49,678 nt of DNA from an uncultured Clostridia bacterium (GCA_946625125.1 CAMOSU010000006.1:1-49678), one strand, 5' to 3'; counted from the first letter of the stretch, positions 3,158 to 11,918 are shown. The notes: generated from the letters alone by a model not told the origin. A program made the numbers and translations.

Positions 3158-5746
3158 ATGACCATGGCCGTATTGACAGTCAACGGAAAACAAGTCGCCG
3201 TCTCCGGGAACAAGAAGCTGATCCGCTTTCTGCGGGACGACCTGAAGCTCACCGGGGTCAAGGACGGCTGCAGCGAGGGCGCCTGCGGCACCTGCCAGGT
3301 GCTCATCGACGGCAAGCTCACCAAGGCCTGCGTTCCCATGACGGACAGGCTGGAGGGGAAGCACATCCTGACGGTGGAGGGCCTGTCCCCCCGGGAGAAG
3401 GAAATCTACACCCGGGCCTTCGGGGAGGCCGGGGCGGTGCAGTGCGGCTTTTGCATCCCCGGAATGGTGATGGCCGCCAAGGCCCTGCTGGATCAGAACC
3501 CCAATCCCAGCCGCGTCGAGGCGGGCTACGCCATACGCAACAACATCTGCCGCTGTACCGGCTATGTGAAGATCATCGACGGCATTCTGCTGGCGGCCCG
3601 GTATCTCCGGGAGGGGCTGCCCCAGGCCGCTCCGGCGGATTTCCGGGTGGGCGCCCGGGTCCCCAGGATCGACGTGGCGGAGAAGGTGCAGGGCTACGGC
3701 AAATACCCCGACGACCTGTACGTGGAGGGGATGTGTTACGGCTCCGCGGTGCGCAGCGCCTATCCCAGAGCCCGGGTCCTCTCCATTGATACCGCCCAGG
3801 CGGAGGCTCTGCCCGGGGTGGTTTGCGTCCTGACCCAAAGGGACATCCCGGGCCAGGTGAACGTGGGCCACATCAAGAAGGACCAGCCCACCCTCATCGG
3901 CGTGGGGGAAATCACCCACTACCTGGGGGACGCGGTGGCCCTGGTCTGCGCCCGGGACCGGGAGACCCTGGAGGCCGCCAAAAAGCTGGTGAAGGTGGAG
4001 TACCAGGTGCTGCCCGCGGTCCATAACCCCGCCGAGGCGGCGGCCCCGGACGCTCCCCTGGTCTTTGAGACGGACCGGGATAACGTGCAGGCCTACAAGC
4101 ACGTCCACCGGGGAGACGCGGCGGGGGCCATTGCCCGCTCCGCCCACGTCCTCACCCGGCACTTTGAGACCCCCTGGACGGAGCACGCCTTCCTGGAGCC
4201 GGAGTGCTGCGTGGCCCTGCCCCTGGAGAACGGCGGGGTGAAGCTCCTCACCACGGACCAGAGCAGCCACACCACCATGCACGAGTGCGCCGCCATGCTG
4301 GGGGTGGACTACGAGCACTGTCAGGTGGAGAATATGCTGGTGGGCGGCGGCTTCGGCGGCAAGGAGGATATGTCCGTCCAGCACCACGCGGCCCTGATCG
4401 CCTATGTGGCCCGGGTGCCGGTGAAGGTAAAGCTCAGCCGGGCGGAGTCCATTCTGGTGCATCCCAAGCGCCACCCCTTCTCCATGGATTTCACCCTGGG
4501 CTGTGATGAGCGGGGAATCATCCAGGGCGTCAAGGCCCGGGTGGTTTCCGACACGGGGGCCTTTGCCTCCCTGGGCGGGCCGGTGCTGGAGCGGGCCTGT
4601 ACCCATGCGGCGGGACCCTACGCCTATGAAAACTTTGAGATTGAAGGCACCGCCTACTATACCAACAACCCCCCCGCCGGGGCCTTCCGGGGCTTCGGCG
4701 TCACCCAGACCTGCTTTGCCATGGAGAGTCTGCTGAACGAAATGGCGGAGCTGGTGGGAATCTCCCCCTGGGAGATTCGGATGCGGAACGCCATCCGGCC
4801 CGGGGGCGTGCTGCCCAACGGCCAGATCGTGGGGCCGGAGACAGGCCTGGTGGAGACTCTGGAAATCGCCAAACAGTATTACGACGAGGCCGTGGCCGCC
4901 GGGGACCCGGTGGGTCTGGCCTGCGCCATGAAAAACGCCGGCGTGGGCGTGGGCCTGCCGGACTGGGGCCGGGCCAGGCTGAGGGTGGAGGAGGACGGCA
5001 GGCTCCACATCTATTCCGGGGCCTCCTGCATCGGCCAGGGCCTTGGCACCGTGCTGGTGCAGATGGTGGTGAGCAACGCCGGACTGAAGCCGGAGCAGAT
5101 CGTCTATGAGCGCTCCAATACCTGGATCGCCCCGGACTCCGGAGATACCTCCGGCTCCCGCCAGACCCTGATTACCGGGGAGGCGGTGCGCCGGGCCTGC
5201 GAGAAGCTGGTCCGGGCCATGGAGGGGAAAGGCCTGGAGGACCTGAAGGGGCAGGAGTTTTGCGGGGAGTACCTGGCCAAAACCGACAAGCTGGGGGCCG
5301 ACGTTCCCAACCCCGTGAGCCACGTGGCCTACGGCTACGCCACCCAGCTCTGCGTCCTGGACCGGGAAACGGGCCGGATCAAGAGGCTTGTGGGCATTCA
5401 CGACGTGGGCAAGGCAGTGAATCCCCTGTCCTGCGAGGGGCAGATCGAGGGGGGGATGGTGATGTCCATGGGCTACGCTCTGACGGAGCGCTACCCCATC
5501 GACGAAAACTGCCGCCCCACGGGGAAATTCGGCACCCTGGGGCTCTTCAAGGCGGACCAGATTCCCGAAATCAAGGCCGTGGTGGTGGATAAACCGGGCC
5601 TGCCCTACGCCAACGGCGCCATCGGCATCGGAGAAATCACCTCCATCCCCACCGCCCCCGCCATCGCGGAGGCCTACTACCAGCGCGACGGCCTCAGAAG
5701 AACCAGCCTCCCCCTGGCAGATACGCCCTACCAGCGGAAGAAATAA
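3158..5746 (+). CDS. molybdenum hydroxylase / selenium-dependent xanthine dehydrogenase-type protein ([2Fe-2S] + MoCo domains fused)
   Basis: 862 aa; [2Fe-2S] motifs CSEGACGTC, QCGFCIPGM and NICRCTGY followed by an XdhA/CoxL-like MoCo domain (GGGFGGKED, GAFRGFG, GIHDVGKAVNPL). Confidence 0.85.
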   Translation: MTMAVLTVNGKQVAVSGNKKLIRFLRDDLKLTGVKDGCSEGACGTCQVLIDGKLTKACVPMTDRLEGKHILTVEGLSPREKEIYTRAFGEAGAVQCGFCIPGMVMAAKALLDQNPNPSRVEAGYAIRNNICRCTGYVKIIDGILLAARYLREGLPQAAPADFRVGARVPRIDVAEKVQGYGKYPDDLYVEGMCYGSAVRSAYPRARVLSIDTAQAEALPGVVCVLTQRDIPGQVNVGHIKKDQPTLIGVGEITHYLGDAVALVCARDRETLEAAKKLVKVEYQVLPAVHNPAEAAAPDAPLVFETDRDNVQAYKHVHRGDAAGAIARSAHVLTRHFETPWTEHAFLEPECCVALPLENGGVKLLTTDQSSHTTMHECAAMLGVDYEHCQVENMLVGGGFGGKEDMSVQHHAALIAYVARVPVKVKLSRAESILVHPKRHPFSMDFTLGCDERGIIQGVKARVVSDTGAFASLGGPVLERACTHAAGPYAYENFEIEGTAYYTNNPPAGAFRGFGVTQTCFAMESLLNEMAELVGISPWEIRMRNAIRPGGVLPNGQIVGPETGLVETLEIAKQYYDEAVAAGDPVGLACAMKNAGVGVGLPDWGRARLRVEEDGRLHIYSGASCIGQGLGTVLVQMVVSNAGLKPEQIVYERSNTWIAPDSGDTSGSRQTLITGEAVRRACEKLVRAMEGKGLEDLKGQEFCGEYLAKTDKLGADVPNPVSHVAYGYATQLCVLDRETGRIKRLVGIHDVGKAVNPLSCEGQIEGGMVMSMGYALTERYPIDENCRPTGKFGTLGLFKADQIPEIKAVVVDKPGLPYANGAIGIGEITSIPTAPAIAEAYYQRDGLRRTSLPLADTPYQRKK

Positions 5747-6204
5747 TGCCGGATTACGTTTGAGCGCTGTTCTTTGACAGCAGCATTGGGAACGGGGAGG
5801 TTCCATCTGCATAGAATGGAACAGTTGGAACAGCCGACATGAACGGTTGCAACAGAGAGCTGCTGTCGCGTATGCAGCTCGCCTTTGTGGCATTTCATGG
5901 GGGTTGATGAGAGAATGGCGGATTTTATGAATAAATTGTAAAATATTTGTAAATAATTTCGAAATTTCGTGCAAATTTGTTTGATTTCGTATATAATACC
6001 ATCTACAGTACCATCTAAAGTATCCTCGAAAACCTTTTGCGTTTTTATGAGTTGACGAGTGGCTATCGCACGATGACAGGTGATGTGACCGCCCTTCATA
6101 CGGAATGGACAACAGCTTGTATACAGCCGAGGTTTTTGTGGGCACTTTTTTGAAATTTTTCGAAAAAACTGTCAATGTCAATCATAAATGGAAGGGGTAT
6201 TCTT

Positions 6205-6414
6205 ATGGCAACGTCATATACCGCGACAGATTTGGATTCGAAGCAAAACGGTGGAAGACTGTTTCGCTCGATTCCAAACTCCCGCTCCTACTTTTTTAAA
6301 GCGGATTCCTTTCCGGAGGCCCTTGCAAATGAACGGAAAGACGGACGATCCTTGGATGATTCGTGCTATGAGCCCATTGGAAAACTGCGTGCGCGAGCGG
6401 ACAAATTTAGGTAA
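6205..6414 (+). CDS. possible small ORF (69 aa), unknown
   Basis: ATG preceded by ggaagggg at a plausible spacing, and a terminator-like hairpin about 50 nt after its stop. No recognisable family. Confidence 0.25.
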   Translation: MATSYTATDLDSKQNGGRLFRSIPNSRSYFFKADSFPEALANERKDGRSLDDSCYEPIGKLRARADKFR

Positions 6415-6462
6415 TCGTCAGGTGGTTCTCTGCCAAATTCCCCTTGATGCAAACACGCGTTG

Positions 6463-6507
6463 ATGGAGGAGACCGCTGTTATCAAGCAGCGGTCTCCTCC
6501 ATTTTCG
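6463..6507 (+). terminator. perfect 16-bp inverted repeat with T-tract (terminator or attenuator)
   Basis: atggaggagaccgctg-ttatcaag-cagcggtctcctccat-tttt. Confidence 0.8.
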
Positions 6508-6546
6508 ATACCGATTACCGAAAATCCCGGAGGAAAAGAGAGAGAA

Positions 6547-8334
6547 ATGTTGGAACGTGTTTTCAAACGGATAAATTTGCTGTTTATCATAGCGATTATC
6601 CTTACGGCCGGACCTTTGGCTTTTGTATGGATTTCACATAATACAGATACTGTAGTTACCGTTGTTTCGCTGCTTTTCGGTCTTGCGTCCGCATGCCTGC
6701 TGTTTTGCATGTTTTACCGCAGTACATATCGCATCTTTCCAAATATCTTTCTTGCAGTCTCTTTTTTTGTGTTTTTTATCATCATGCTGTCAGTTGCCCG
6801 ACAGGATCAAAGACTGCTGGGTTTAAAAATCATGAAGGACGAGCTTGCGACCCTGTTTCTGGGTGACAGCTTTACAAAATGGTTTGGATGGAGTGTTTTT
6901 GGCACCGCACTGGCAACTGTTGTGGCAAAAGCATCCGAGGATCTGTGGCATGGACTGGGGCAAAGTACCGCAGACGATTACGTGAAGCTCGGTTATCGCT
7001 TTAAACGGCAACGTCTTAAGCTGCTTACCTACCGGGGAAGGCACTTGACGCCTCTGAGCTGGATGTTGGCCTCCTATATCCTTGCTGCCCTGGTGACTCC
7101 TCTGTTCCTGTTTCCAAGCAAGGAAGGCATGGCTCTGCAAATGCTTCTTTCCCTGTATTTTGTGGCTGTTGCTTCTGCTCTGGTCGGCTTTGTGCTCCAT
7201 CAGTTCATCACGGACGACCATTTGCTGCGTTCAGAAAAAACCTACATTGAGAATCGGAAGGGCCAGGCATTGAAGCAGTTCAGCGCGGGGAAAAACGGTA
7301 AATGCGGATGGCAATGGAGTACCTACTGTCAGGTTTTGGCGAACATCTACTGCAGCAGAAGTCCAATCCTGTACGAAAATAAACGAATCCACGATGATAT
7401 TACTGCCGCCATGTGTCTTCCGGCCGAAGGCTGTTGCGCCAGATTCCTTGCGGGCCTCGTTGCGGCCTTCCATGAGATCAACTCGTTATACTGCAGCAAG
7501 TTAGCTGAATCTGAAGAGCTTGCGCTGGAACTGCAATTTACGAAGGCAGTGGAAGCGCCCATGCCGTCTTCCAATGCAAATTTATTGCGTCCGGGAATCA
7601 TTGTGGTTAAAAGATTGTATGGTGCGTTTGAGGCTTTTTTTCTTGACGCAGATGCAGCTAAGCCCGTTGAGAAAAGATGGTTCTTTGTCCCTTCCATGGG
7701 CTATCGGGACATCAAGCATCTCCTGTTATTGGACTGCCTGAAGCAGTTGGCCGCCCATCAGGAAATGACCGATCAATGTCCCTTATCCTGGATTTGCAAA
7801 TCCGAAACGACTGGCACTACGCAAACCGAATGCCGCTGTCTGGAGCAAAAGGTCAAGAATCTCCCTCAAAAGGTCCTTGCTTTGCTCTGCTTTAAACTTC
7901 CCTACGCCATTGAAAAATCACTTGAGGATCGATGGGGGGACAAAATCCTTGCGCAGGGACATGAGCAATTCTCTGAGTCTATGTCGTCTGCCCTGATTTA
8001 TTTCTACAAAAGCAAGTATATGAAGAATGTTGTTAAGTCTGTCCCCGAAAATGACATTGACAGCTTATCGAAGGAATTCAGTGATTATCTTTTGTCGTTT
8101 GATCTCAAGCGAAATAGAATTCGCTTGATTGTAAGTGATTTCGGTTTGCTTCATTCCCGGGAAGTGCAGGAATTGGCACAGGCACGCACCATGGGCCTTG
8201 GTGGTAATCCTGCCAGTCTTTCAACAAGCGTTGGGCAGCAGAATGGAATGTCGGTGATGAATGACAATAGAATCCGGGAGCAACTGCCGGAATATGTGAA
8301 TAGACTTATCAAGTCTCTGCGGAAGGAGCCGTAA
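6547..8334 (+). CDS. membrane protein of unknown function with large C-terminal soluble domain
   Basis: ORF opens at 6460, but the likely start is 6547 (SD-like cggaggaaaagagagagaaATG). About 5-6 hydrophobic segments in the N-terminal third, then about 370 hydrophilic residues. Confidence 0.75.
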   Translation: MLERVFKRINLLFIIAIILTAGPLAFVWISHNTDTVVTVVSLLFGLASACLLFCMFYRSTYRIFPNIFLAVSFFVFFIIMLSVARQDQRLLGLKIMKDELATLFLGDSFTKWFGWSVFGTALATVVAKASEDLWHGLGQSTADDYVKLGYRFKRQRLKLLTYRGRHLTPLSWMLASYILAALVTPLFLFPSKEGMALQMLLSLYFVAVASALVGFVLHQFITDDHLLRSEKTYIENRKGQALKQFSAGKNGKCGWQWSTYCQVLANIYCSRSPILYENKRIHDDITAAMCLPAEGCCARFLAGLVAAFHEINSLYCSKLAESEELALELQFTKAVEAPMPSSNANLLRPGIIVVKRLYGAFEAFFLDADAAKPVEKRWFFVPSMGYRDIKHLLLLDCLKQLAAHQEMTDQCPLSWICKSETTGTTQTECRCLEQKVKNLPQKVLALLCFKLPYAIEKSLEDRWGDKILAQGHEQFSESMSSALIYFYKSKYMKNVVKSVPENDIDSLSKEFSDYLLSFDLKRNRIRLIVSDFGLLHSREVQELAQARTMGLGGNPASLSTSVGQQNGMSVMNDNRIREQLPEYVNRLIKSLRKEP

Positions 8335-8335
8335 C

Positions 8336-11215
8336 ATGGGAGCAAATCACGATAGGAACACGACGCAAGGGAGCAGGGGGGAAAGCATGCGTACGGTGAA
8401 AACTCTTCTGATGTGCAAAGTACGGCCGTCAGTGCTTCACAGCAATCAGGAGCTGAATTATCCCTTGATTTACAAGGACATTCATACCGGAAAAAACGCC
8501 CGTCGCTATATTACCTTGGGAAACGCGGACGCTGTCAGCATCTATGATACCTGTGATTCTTCTGACCGCGACTGGTTCAGTAAGCTGTACCAGGACAAGC
8601 AAGAGATTATTTTCGCCGCGAATGAGAAGCTGAACTACCACCCGATCCATCTGGTGGCCAACAGAGAATACAGCAATAAGCACGAAGGCAAGCCCATCTG
8701 CGTCATTACCTTAATCTACGGAGTTCGGCCATGGGAAAAAGAGCCTCCTTCCGAAGAAGAACCATCCCTCAGCCGTTATGAGCTGAAAATTCAGCGTTTC
8801 CTGAAAGCACTGAGCGAGGATAATCCCCACTATGAGTATGAGATCTATAACGCGGTCAACATTTGCGATGCGGTAATCTTGTGGTATACCGATGATTTAT
8901 GGGAGGTCCTTGCGAAAACGGAGCAGCTAACCAGCAAGCAGTTTGCCCGGAAAAGCTTCACACTGATTGGTTTCCCAATGTGTGAGAAAGGAGAGACGGA
9001 ACAAAACGGTACAATTTCCTCCCTTGCCTATCAAGCTGTTCGAGCTTCCCAAAAACCCTCCTCGCCTGTTCATGTGCGTATCCTCGGTTCGATTCGGGAT
9101 CAGGGCAATTATCGGAAAAACTTGGAGAAGATCCGCAAGAAGCTTGAGATTCACTCCGACGGTATCCAGGACTATTTTATTTGCGGGCAAACGGATTTTT
9201 CCGTGTTGATTCCCAACATGGACAACGACAAGCTTGAAAAGCTCCTGAGGCTGTATATGGACCCAGAGGTTGGCAGAGACTATGCGGAAGCATACTGGGA
9301 AGTGCACTCAGAGCTGATGTACGATGATCCTGCCAAAATCCAAGACGGTACGACGCGAACGGAAGAAGCCGGGGAAAAGGCGCGCGCAAATCTCAACTGC
9401 GCCAGCGTGGCCGAAAACACCGACGGTCACGGGCAGAAAAATGCAGAGCTTCCTGCTGTGAGTTCAAGCATAGGGCCTGAGTGCATTCTGGACAAATTAT
9501 ACGCACAATGCCGTCAACTCATGGAAAATAAAGATGACGCCAAAGAGCTTCGTAAGGAGTTTCCGTGGATCAGTGCCTTCGTTGAGCTGTTTAATGTGCA
9601 TTCCAACATTGACCGGGACCCCATTTTATACGGCCCAGGCTTTCTGCTCTACTATTCCATGAAGGTATTTCTGTGGTATTTGGAGGCGTGGAAGAAAGAA
9701 AAAGAGGCGAAAAACGAGACCCCATATCGCCAGATGCTTCTTCACAGCCGTGATACGATTCAGGAGTATCTGCAGGCTTTGAGCGGGTTGACTGACCAAA
9801 TGATGCGGATCGATGACCTTGTCTTCCACGGGTTTGGCAATAACTCCGCCCTTTACAACACTTTGCCGGAGTGTGCGCTGGACTTCTATCACTCTTTCCT
9901 TCTGAAGCTTGTCAATCTTCTGGTTGATGTCGATGCGTCAGAGGGACGGCTTTATGACGGTGTATCAAAGGGTTGCTTCAGCCCCGAAAAAATCGAGAAT
10001 AAAGCGTATCGAAAAGACTACTTTTACGATTTCCTTCTGCTGCCAGAGTTGGAACGCGGTATTTCAATTGTTCCTGTTTTTGCGACAGATGAGCTTAAGG
10101 CACCGATGTTGGAGAAAGAAAAAAAACGTGCTCTTTGGCCTGAAAAACAAGCATTCTTAGTCCACTTCCCCATCGAAACTGTGTATTCACCGACCAACTT
10201 CTTTGCCCCCTTGGTGCATGAATGTTTCCACCTGCTGGGAGACGCCTGCAGGCTTCGGGGGAGTAGAGTCGACTATGTCTGTGCTTTTTTTGCATCCCTT
10301 TTTTCCACTCACCTTATTTGCGGGAGCTGTGAAGAGGAAGATAAGAAAATACTCGCTTTCTTCTTTTGCAGACTGCGGCAGGAATTTCCTCTTGACAATC
10401 CAGAACCCAACTTTCCGGAAACTGAAAAATATTTGCAGCAGGGCATTCAAAAGCTGTTTACCGCGGAAGGACTGAAGACAATTCGAGGTAAGTTGCCGGA
10501 AGAGTATCTCTTTTACACCACGGAGTTTGTTCGTTCTTGGGCGGATGCTGCTTCAGCCCTGGGCTCTCAAGAAAACTATTGGCGTCTAAAGCTGCTCAAC
10601 CCCGATTGGGTCAGCTTAATCGATGAGTGCACTTATCTTTTCAAGGAGTGCTACGCGGATCTGATGATGGTGCTGACACTTGGTCTGTCCTCCGAAACCT
10701 ACCTCAACATGTTTCAGGAGGATCTTATTCGGGCTGAAATGGATCTGAAGCATGCATTCCTGACACGGGAGGCACAGCGCATTGCCCTTGTTTTGCGCGC
10801 CTGCACTGAAGCTAAGATCAATGACTCTGATGCCACAGGAAGTTGGAAAACAGATAGAATCCGAAGTAATCTGGAGAATACTTCAATTCCGCAAAAAGTA
10901 AAGCATACGATTCTAGCTTGCTACGATGTGCTGCTGGATAACGCCAAAGCGTTTCCTGTGGACATGGATGATAACACCCGCATGAGATTGTTCCCCCGCG
11001 CATCCATACAATACGTGAAGGATTACCTCGACGAGGTGTATGGAAAATTCCAAACTTGTTTTGTTAAAGGTAAACATTCAGAAGAATTGAGAACCATCAC
11101 AAAGGAATTCAAAGATTTCTTTATTGAAGGTAAGTTTATCAGCAATGAATATTTTCAGATTATCCGTGCCAATCACGAGGTTATCCGAACAAATCGGGGA
11201 AATACCCATGGGTAA
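8336..11215 (+). CDS. unknown protein with putative N-terminal ferredoxin-like repeats and C-terminal HExxH metallopeptidase-like region
   Basis: 959-aa ORF starting 1 nt after the upstream stop (alternative start 8387). HECFH at 10217-10231 and ECYAD at 10646-10660. Confidence 0.75.
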   Translation: MGANHDRNTTQGSRGESMRTVKTLLMCKVRPSVLHSNQELNYPLIYKDIHTGKNARRYITLGNADAVSIYDTCDSSDRDWFSKLYQDKQEIIFAANEKLNYHPIHLVANREYSNKHEGKPICVITLIYGVRPWEKEPPSEEEPSLSRYELKIQRFLKALSEDNPHYEYEIYNAVNICDAVILWYTDDLWEVLAKTEQLTSKQFARKSFTLIGFPMCEKGETEQNGTISSLAYQAVRASQKPSSPVHVRILGSIRDQGNYRKNLEKIRKKLEIHSDGIQDYFICGQTDFSVLIPNMDNDKLEKLLRLYMDPEVGRDYAEAYWEVHSELMYDDPAKIQDGTTRTEEAGEKARANLNCASVAENTDGHGQKNAELPAVSSSIGPECILDKLYAQCRQLMENKDDAKELRKEFPWISAFVELFNVHSNIDRDPILYGPGFLLYYSMKVFLWYLEAWKKEKEAKNETPYRQMLLHSRDTIQEYLQALSGLTDQMMRIDDLVFHGFGNNSALYNTLPECALDFYHSFLLKLVNLLVDVDASEGRLYDGVSKGCFSPEKIENKAYRKDYFYDFLLLPELERGISIVPVFATDELKAPMLEKEKKRALWPEKQAFLVHFPIETVYSPTNFFAPLVHECFHLLGDACRLRGSRVDYVCAFFASLFSTHLICGSCEEEDKKILAFFFCRLRQEFPLDNPEPNFPETEKYLQQGIQKLFTAEGLKTIRGKLPEEYLFYTTEFVRSWADAASALGSQENYWRLKLLNPDWVSLIDECTYLFKECYADLMMVLTLGLSSETYLNMFQEDLIRAEMDLKHAFLTREAQRIALVLRACTEAKINDSDATGSWKTDRIRSNLENTSIPQKVKHTILACYDVLLDNAKAFPVDMDDNTRMRLFPRASIQYVKDYLDEVYGKFQTCFVKGKHSEELRTITKEFKDFFIEGKFISNEYFQIIRANHEVIRTNRGNTHG

Positions 11216-11918
11216 TCTCCTCCTTGCGAGGCTGGTGCTGAGCAGGAAGCGGCTGGAAGGAGAGCCAAACGGACGTATTAGTTACGTTCTGCTTCTGCTG
11301 GTCCTTGTTTTTTTCGTGGGCTTGACGGCCTGCGGGGACGCGGAGCGGGAGAGCCGGGGAGCAGCGGCTGTGACGCTGCCCGTTCCGGTCCAGCCTGCGC
11401 CCGGGGGTGCGGGGGGCGGCACGGCTGAGGGAATCCCGGAGAGCGGAAAGAGCAGCGCTCCGACCGATGCTGAAAGCGGTCTCGCGGAGGACACCCAGGC
11501 GTCCCACCGGGAGGACGGAGTACAGGGCGGAGTGGGACACGCCGAGCCGATTTCCGGGAAATACTGTGTGCTGGGGGTTTACGGGCGCAGCTACCCGGAC
11601 TATACTGCTTTGCGCTTTGATTTTGAAAACAAAAAATTCAATTTTGGCCTTCCTACCCTCGACTCCTCCTGGATCAGGCGGGGCGAGCTGAAGGTAGAGG
11701 GAAGCCGGATCACCGCCGTCTGCAACAGGCAAAAAAGCGATTTCGTGGGAGACAAGCTGGTGCTTCTGGGAAGCTTCACCTGGATCTTTGAGTTGGAGCC
11801 GGACGGCAGTCTTCGCTTTATCCCCGAGGGCTCCGATGAATTCCAGGTCTACGGCACCCATCTTGACGCCGACAGCGTACTCCTCCGGGTGGGGGACCTG
11901 GACAAGCCGCTGGATTGA
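11208..11918 (+). CDS. putative lipoprotein of unknown function
   Basis: ATG overlaps the upstream TAA (ATGGGTAA). Hydrophobic stretch followed by lipobox LTAC|GD; Pro/Gly/Ala/Glu-rich linker then a small C-terminal domain. Confidence 0.6.
   Translation: MGNLLLARLVLSRKRLEGEPNGRISYVLLLLVLVFFVGLTACGDAERESRGAAAVTLPVPVQPAPGGAGGGTAEGIPESGKSSAPTDAESGLAEDTQASHREDGVQGGVGHAEPISGKYCVLGVYGRSYPDYTALRFDFENKKFNFGLPTLDSSWIRRGELKVEGSRITAVCNRQKSDFVGDKLVLLGSFTWIFELEPDGSLRFIPEGSDEFQVYGTHLDADSVLLRVGDLDKPLD

What the first reader, a model, noticed from the sequence alone, without database searches (positions are those of the whole stretch)
5750..11215. Low-GC island carrying an unassigned membrane protein + HExxH protein operon
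Seen directly: between the GC-rich xanthine dehydrogenase gene and the GC-rich region from about 11.3 kb, base composition drops and an AT-rich leader appears (about 5930-6200). Two long ORFs (6547-8334 and 8336-11215) are separated by 1 nt. The first has an N-terminal cluster of TM segments and a large soluble domain; the second is a large multi-domain soluble protein. I recognise neither as a known family. Inference: a horizontally acquired two- or three-gene module with a membrane partner and a putative protease effector/sensor, which is an architecture seen in defence and stress-signalling islands. No integrase, transposase or tRNA attachment site is visible, so mobility is not shown.
Basis: partly seen in the sequence, partly recalled or inferred. 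Interest (0 to 1): 0.78.

Follow-up and report, generated by a model that had tools for sequence, protein, structure and literature searches.

The report
Unnamed zinc-protease module with swappable toxin
A gut bacterium carries a foreign-looking gene cassette that pairs a large zinc-protease-like protein, of a family absent from the databases searched, with a membrane protein; distant relatives of the protease sit beside known bacterial self-destruct (NAD-destroying-type) genes, which suggests an uncharacterised anti-virus suicide system.

Summary
Confirmed: window 5.93-11.215 kb is a low-GC (47% vs 60-67%; GC3 0.49-0.55 vs 0.71-0.88) operon: small ORF (6205-6414), strong hairpin (6463-6502), a 5-6-TM protein (6547-8334) and a 959-aa soluble protein (8336-11215). 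Neither large protein passes a threshold in Pfam, NCBIfam, PADLOC or PHROGs; the 959-aa protein is absent from 22 same-genus genomes. Four loci elsewhere extend it into a family: three N-terminal alpha/beta (Lrp/chlorite-dismutase-like) repeats, then a gluzincin (HExxH...E[CG][YF][AS]D). A termite-gut relative, in another low-GC cassette, pairs it with a TM protein plus a small soluble protein. A more distant branch pairs it with a SIR2-like protein in all three genomes seen (low-GC island in one) and, in one, also with a DUF4062/TIR-like receiver protein. I read it as a mobile, probably antiphage, sensor-protease plus swappable-effector module. Horizontal acquisition, operon and family are well supported; the defence role is inferred from partners; proteolytic activation is a hypothesis. 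The link between the two branches is weak but reproducible.

The parts
5930..6200 (+). AT-rich leader / presumed promoter region; contains a 12-nt direct repeat TACCATCTACAG/TACCATCTAAAG (5998-6019)
   Evidence: sequence; motif unique in the window against shuffles and among the loci held at that time found only here and in the SIR2-type island L027, but at least 119 viral contigs match it, so weak evidence
6205..6414 (+). small first ORF, 69 aa (MATSYTATDL...KFR), unknown; candidate substrate, inhibitor or leader peptide
   Evidence: AAGGGG ribosome-binding site; every other locus also has a 66-95 aa ORF directly upstream on the same strand; the L017/L021 pair shows dN/dS 0.26; sequences of different branches not alignable
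6463..6502 (+). perfect GC-rich hairpin (16-bp inverted repeat, 8-nt gap) between small ORF and operon; possible attenuator or processing site
   Evidence: RNA fold z = -9.0; comparable hairpins at the same place in L027 (z -4.0) and L015 (z -4.2), none in L017; no T-run, so not called a terminator
6547..8334 (+). 595-aa membrane protein: 5 (perhaps 6) TM segments in aa 1-217, then a soluble domain aa 218-595; proposed membrane effector
   Evidence: no family hit above threshold; no homologue in the 251 family genomes searched
8336..11215 (+). 959-aa soluble protein: triple alpha/beta-repeat sensor region plus gluzincin
8399..8647 (+). sensor repeat 1 (aa ~22-104; LGNAD, invariant G62/D65)
   Evidence: G..D invariant in 5 of 5 homologues
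8696..8977 (+). sensor repeat 2 (aa ~121-214; ICDAVILW...TLIG; beta-alpha-beta-beta-alpha-beta)
   Evidence: secondary structure in two low-confidence models; Foldseek matches to Lrp/AsnC ligand-binding and chlorite-dismutase/HemQ folds, obtained with the L027 homologue
9065..9265 (+). sensor repeat 3 (aa ~244-310; CGQTD, invariant G284/D287)
10217..10231 (+). HECFH zinc-binding motif (aa 628-632), followed by G635, R639, R644
   Evidence: HExxH, G, R, R invariant in 5 of 5 homologues
10646..10660 (+). ECYAD glutamate motif (aa 771-775), presumed third zinc ligand
   Evidence: E[CG][YF][AS]D downstream of HExxH in all homologues

Best explanation
The island is a horizontally moving two-gene conflict (most likely antiphage, abortive-infection type) module with a small leader gene. 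The 959-aa protein is the conserved core: three N-terminal Lrp/chlorite-dismutase-like alpha/beta repeats detect an infection cue or ligand and control a C-terminal gluzincin. The adjacent gene is the interchangeable effector: here a 5-6-TM protein with a cytosolic domain, presumed to damage the membrane; in the SIR2 branch a SIR2-like (NADase-type) protein. Most likely step: on sensing, the metalloprotease cleaves or releases its partner (or the small first-gene product) and so switches the effector on. Shown: operon, foreign composition, absence from the genus, family with both zincin motifs, different partners in different genomes. Inferred: defence role, protease activity, the effector role of the membrane protein. 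Hypothetical: that cleavage of the partner is the trigger. Step estimates: accessory horizontally acquired module 0.95; conflict/defence role 0.7; active peptidase 0.75; proteolysis activates the neighbour 0.4.
For: Composition and GC3; absent from 22 same-genus genomes and from all 147 other relatives searched. Termite-gut homologue, full-length collinear (tblastn about 1e-19), also in a low-GC cassette with a TM protein. Distant branch: P0004, its 90% orthologue and P0011 (P0004+L021 profile to P0011 E 8e-44), each directly followed on the same strand by SIR2 (Pfam SIR2_2 9e-14 and 3e-16; 91% orthologue). One of them also has a TIR-like DUF4062 (PADLOC PDC-S60 8e-24) plus receiver protein; DUF4062 proteins are NADases with antiphage activity (PMC13174449, preprint). 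Cross-branch link: SIR2-branch profile to P0002 19.8 bits against 3.9 for the best of 3000 shuffles, and the reverse to P0004 15.8 against 9.2; hmmsearch E 3.8e-4 per genome; same three G..D repeats and both zincin motifs. Purifying selection on protease-like and SIR2 genes, dN/dS 0.20 and 0.22.
Against: No phage challenge; no known defence gene within the window's own island; P0001 has no homologue at all and no other locus has a protein like it, so its effector role rests on analogy. Cross-branch similarity is weak outside the HExxH block, and in one profile direction P0011 scores below the best shuffled decoy (7.1 vs 9.2 bits). Structure models have low confidence (pLDDT 37). PADLOC and Pfam have no entry for the family.
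Confidence: 0.5

Rival explanations
1. Peptide-processing signalling: the HExxH protein processes the small, fast-diverging product of the first ORF (6205-6414), and the released peptide acts as signal, toxin or antitoxin, as proposed for the zincin plus small-precursor pairs of VMAP/FtsH ternary conflict systems (FxSxx-COOH type).
For: A 66-95 aa ORF stands first in all loci, diverges beyond recognition between branches, and is under purifying selection where testable; published precedent of zincin plus small variable precursor (PMC7159879 section 24).
Against: No FxSxx terminus, radical-SAM, vWA, MoxR or AP-ATPase gene beside it; no NCBIfam hit for any of these proteins to such families. Small ORFs of this size can arise by chance; a hairpin separates it from the operon.
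Confidence: 0.2
2. Toxin-antitoxin-like module: the large protein is itself a toxic protease and the membrane protein or SIR2 its regulator; the small first gene, expressed above the hairpin, is the inhibitor.
For: Gene order small ORF, hairpin, operon recalls excess-inhibitor arrangements; small antitoxin genes beside abortive-infection toxins exist (Sofic/AS1, PMC12249575).
Against: SIR2 is a well-known effector in other systems, and the partner is the exchanged part, as expected of an effector rather than a regulator.
Confidence: 0.12
3. Membrane stress-response or regulatory protease module (site-2 or BlaR1-like logic) unrelated to phage; SIR2 association coincidental.
For: Membrane protein beside a protease-like protein; ligand-binding-like sensor repeats; the cross-branch homology that brings in SIR2 is weak.
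Against: SIR2 pairing in 3 of 3 members of that branch; rare, patchy occurrence; two further low-GC islands.
Confidence: 0.15
4. Assembly or binning artefact: foreign contig piece joined into the MAG.
For: G000 is 170 contigs, 79% complete; no same-genus genome has the island.
Against: Host-like GC on both sides of an internal 5.3-kb segment of one 49.7-kb contig, intact operon, sharp GC change at the XDH and P0002 ends; independent low-GC cassettes in two other genomes.
Confidence: 0.03

Closest known systems
Gluzincin metallopeptidases (HExxH + E ligand; thermolysin-type order, recalled from general knowledge)
   Same: HExxH followed 140-250 residues later by an E[CG][YF][AS]D motif, helices predicted around both
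   Different: no significant match to any Pfam, NCBIfam or PDB peptidase
SIR2-dependent defence systems (Thoeris ThsA, DSR, SPARSA, Lamassu-Sir2)
   Same: SIR2 gene adjacent to a partner in the distant branch; P0005 hits PADLOC SIR2, ThsA and LmuA models
   Different: partner here is a triple-repeat gluzincin, not TIR/ThsB, Argonaute/APAZ or an SMC-like protein; the window locus has no SIR2
Swarozyc / DUF4062 TIR-like NADases (PMC13174449)
   Same: DUF4062-like protein in the operon of one homologue (G978); DUF4062 proteins known to occur in operons with diverse enzymes
   Different: found only once here, fused to a receiver domain; absent from the window
Zincin plus FxSxx-COOH peptide-processing systems of VMAP/FtsH ternary conflict systems (PMC7159879)
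   Same: zincin next to a small, rapidly diverging protein in a conflict context
   Different: no vWA, MoxR, AP-ATPase or radical SAM; no FxSxx motif; no sign of the same protein family
Lrp/AsnC RAM domains and chlorite dismutase/HemQ (dimeric alpha/beta-barrel fold)
   Same: repeat topology beta-alpha-beta-beta-alpha-beta; nearly all of the top Foldseek hits are of this fold; weak PDB profile hit to chlorite dismutase (E 0.86)
   Different: three tandem copies fused to a protease; no significant sequence match; ligand unknown

Membership tests
Gluzincin (zinc metallopeptidase) | HExxH motif in a helix | tested here: met
   aa 628-632, invariant in 5 of 5 homologues; predicted helix 619-637 (low confidence)
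Gluzincin (zinc metallopeptidase) | downstream Glu third ligand | tested here: met
   ECYAD / EGFSD / ECYAD in all homologues; role as ligand inferred
Gluzincin (zinc metallopeptidase) | zinc binding and proteolysis | not testable with these tools
   needs biochemistry
Antiphage defence system | listed in a defence library (PADLOC) | tested here: not met
   no PADLOC model for P0001, P0002, P0003, P0004 or P0011
Antiphage defence system | partnership with known defence effectors | tested here: inconclusive
   met only in the distant branch: SIR2 in 3 of 3, DUF4062-like in 1; not in the window locus itself
Antiphage defence system | accessory, patchy distribution and foreign composition | tested here: met
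Antiphage defence system | reduces phage infection | not testable with these tools
   experiment needed
Membership of P0002 in the same family as the SIR2-branch proteins | significant profile similarity above shuffled decoys | tested here: met
   19.8 bits vs best decoy 3.9 (E 3e-5 in about 3000 sequences); reverse 15.8 vs 9.2 for P0004, but P0011 only 7.1
Membership of P0002 in the same family as the SIR2-branch proteins | adjacent SIR2 effector | tested here: not met
   window partner is a membrane protein, so it is not a member of the SIR2 branch proper
FxSxx-COOH peptide-processing system | FxSxx C-terminus, radical-SAM and vWA/AP-ATPase genes | tested here: not met
   small-ORF sequences, ORF lists, NCBIfam
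Integrative element | integrase, tRNA site or flanking repeats | tested here: not met
   no tRNA, no recombinase recognised in the ORF list, no long flanking direct repeat

The most novel reading that the evidence does not exclude
A previously undescribed class of bacterial immune system in which a metalloprotease with a triple Lrp/chlorite-dismutase-like sensor activates exchangeable death effectors (membrane-disrupting here, SIR2 NADase elsewhere) by proteolysis.
Probability: 0.3. Interest if true: 0.85.

Novelty: new variant of a known kind. Interest (0 to 1): 0.62.

Why it matters
Known proteases in bacterial immunity are mostly caspase-like, trypsin-like or Lon-type (established knowledge). 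A zincin core that keeps its architecture while its partner changes from a membrane protein to SIR2 would add a metalloprotease branch, and the N-terminal repeats offer a testable sensor. The family is absent from Pfam, NCBIfam, PADLOC and PHROGs, so defence annotation by those libraries misses it, and it gives a concrete hypothesis for otherwise unassigned islands in gut Clostridia.

Tried and rejected
Single-sequence scans of viral and genome collections with P0001 and P0002 gave nothing (the genome collection was scanned with P0002 only). Weak genome hits to ATP synthase alpha (L002), TmcAL (L003) and a MATE transporter (L014) were checked and rejected as chance. L028 (G212) was a chance hit: no HExxH protein of this kind there. 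The DUF6831 hit of P0001 (E 0.004, below cut-off, 33 residues) was not used; no paper names it. The leader direct repeat shared with L027 looked like a mobility signature, but many viral contigs match it, so it is not used as evidence. AlphaFold on five sequences gave pLDDT 37 twice; only secondary-structure order and the consistent fold class of the Foldseek hits are used. Clean empty site: not shown; same-genus XDH contigs share nothing beyond the XDH stop, and the lipoprotein gene to the right has no XDH beside it in G010. Plasmid and phage tblastn with P0001-P0004 and P0011 (P0001 and P0003 against plasmids only): no match. Rfam scan of the leader: nothing.

Full report
Observation. The segment from about 5.93 to 11.215 kb is 45-50% GC inside a 60-67% GC contig, and third-position GC is 0.49-0.55 against 0.71-0.88 in flanking genes. 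A third ORF, 6205-6414 (69 aa), has a good ribosome-binding site and precedes a perfect 16-bp inverted repeat (6463-6502; RNA fold z -9.0). The window is the complete contig C6 of a 2.17-Mb, 170-contig, 79%-complete genome.

Accessory nature. P0002 has no match in 147 relatives, including 22 of the same genus (genus membership listed). In five same-genus genomes carrying the XDH gene (80-92% protein identity), nucleotide similarity to the window stops at 5684-5750, at or just before the XDH stop codon. No integrase, tRNA or long flanking repeat is present, so the mode of transfer is unknown and no clean empty site was shown.

Family search. Pfam, PADLOC, PHROGs and NCBIfam give nothing above threshold for P0001 or P0002, and standard scans found no homologue. 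A scan with a short query joining the two putative zinc motifs found one locus: L015, a termite-gut Oscillospiraceae MAG, whose 896-aa protein (P0003) is collinear with P0002 over its whole length (tblastn about 1e-19). A profile of the pair then found P0004 in another genus of the window's own family (G978), a 90% orthologue in G1038, and, with those added, P0011 in another family of the class (G197, E 7.5e-15).

Architecture. All five proteins have three N-terminal repeats with an invariant G..D or D (aa 62/65, 178, 284/287 of P0002), then HExxH followed by G635, R639, R644, and later E[CG][YF][AS]D. This is the motif order of gluzincins. Two AlphaFold models are of low confidence (mean pLDDT 36.8 each), but both give repeat 2 the strand-helix order of a ferredoxin-like fold, and nearly all of the top Foldseek hits of the second model (E 0.004 and up, none below 0.001) are Lrp/AsnC ligand-binding domains or chlorite dismutase/HemQ. 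I take the N-terminus as a ligand- or protein-sensing region; the ligand is unknown.

Strength of the link. P0002-P0003 and P0004-P0011 are clear pairs. Between the branches, the SIR2-branch profile gives P0002 19.8 bits against 3.9 for the best of 3000 shuffled decoys, and the P0002/P0003 profile gives P0004 15.8 against 9.2 but P0011 only 7.1. Shared repeats, both zinc motifs, similar length and similar locus layout support homology, but this link is the weakest joint in the argument.

Partners. In G978, G1038 and G197 the protease-like gene is directly followed by a SIR2 gene (Pfam SIR2_2 9e-14 and 3e-16; 91% orthologue) with the conserved NYDN and H.HG motifs. In G1038 the pair is read from a small contig that ends inside the protease gene. 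In G978 a third gene encodes a DUF4062/TIR-like domain (PADLOC PDC-S60, 8e-24) fused to a receiver domain; in G1038 something else stands there. DUF4062 proteins were recently shown to be antiphage NADases (PMC13174449). In L015 the protease-like gene follows a 3-TM protein and a 174-aa soluble protein; in the window it follows the 5-6-TM protein P0001. L015 and G197 loci are also low-GC cassettes. The protease-like protein is thus the constant part and the partner the variable part, as expected of a sensor with exchangeable effectors. Selection is purifying on the protease-like and SIR2 genes (dN/dS 0.20 and 0.22).

Small ORF and hairpin. Each locus begins with a 66-95 aa ORF; in window, L015 and G197 a strong hairpin separates it from the large genes (z -9.0, -4.2, -4.0), in G978 not. 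The small proteins of different branches are not alignable, though the G978/G1038 pair looks selected (dN/dS 0.26, 66 codons). A zincin beside a small, fast-diverging protein is known from other conflict systems (PMC7159879). I treat substrate or inhibitor as a live rival.

Mechanism. Preferred: infection cue, sensor repeats, gluzincin activation, cleavage or release of the partner, membrane damage here and NAD depletion in the SIR2 branch, then abortive infection. Sensor, protease and effector roles are inferred from motifs, fold class and partners; the order of events is a hypothesis. The defence role of the window locus itself rests on the distant branch.

Novelty. Literature searches for metalloprotease, SIR2 and defence combinations found no such system, within an open-access library only. 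Sensor plus swappable effector is a known kind of system; a triple-repeat gluzincin as its core appears new. Hence a new variant of a known kind.

Noticed in passing
window 11208-11918: Lipoprotein-like gene directly after the island has no obvious native start: a ribosome-binding-like GGAAGGAG at about 11255-11263 is followed by ATT rather than ATG, so its 5' end may have been altered at the island boundary; homologues in G010 and G015.
   Followed up: partly
window 5998-6019 and L027 11030-11050: Tandem ACCATYTRMA repeats in the leaders of two distantly related islands, same orientation to the operon; also common in viral contigs, so possibly chance or an integrase-arm-like remnant.
   Followed up: partly
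L017 6147-7037 (-): DUF4062/TIR-like domain fused to a response-regulator receiver domain, a combination that struck me as unusual.
   Followed up: partly
L022 472-1152 (-) and following ORF: In G1038, genes resembling a DUF3990-type ORF and a small partner (identified by eye) stand after SIR2 where G978 has the DUF4062-receiver gene.
   Followed up: no
L015 7432-7956: 174-aa protein with a Cys/His-rich cluster (CAISCDQQTCGHWWCRNWGCKEMPC) beside the protease homologue, weak PADLOC PDC-M26B hit (E 0.007).
   Followed up: no
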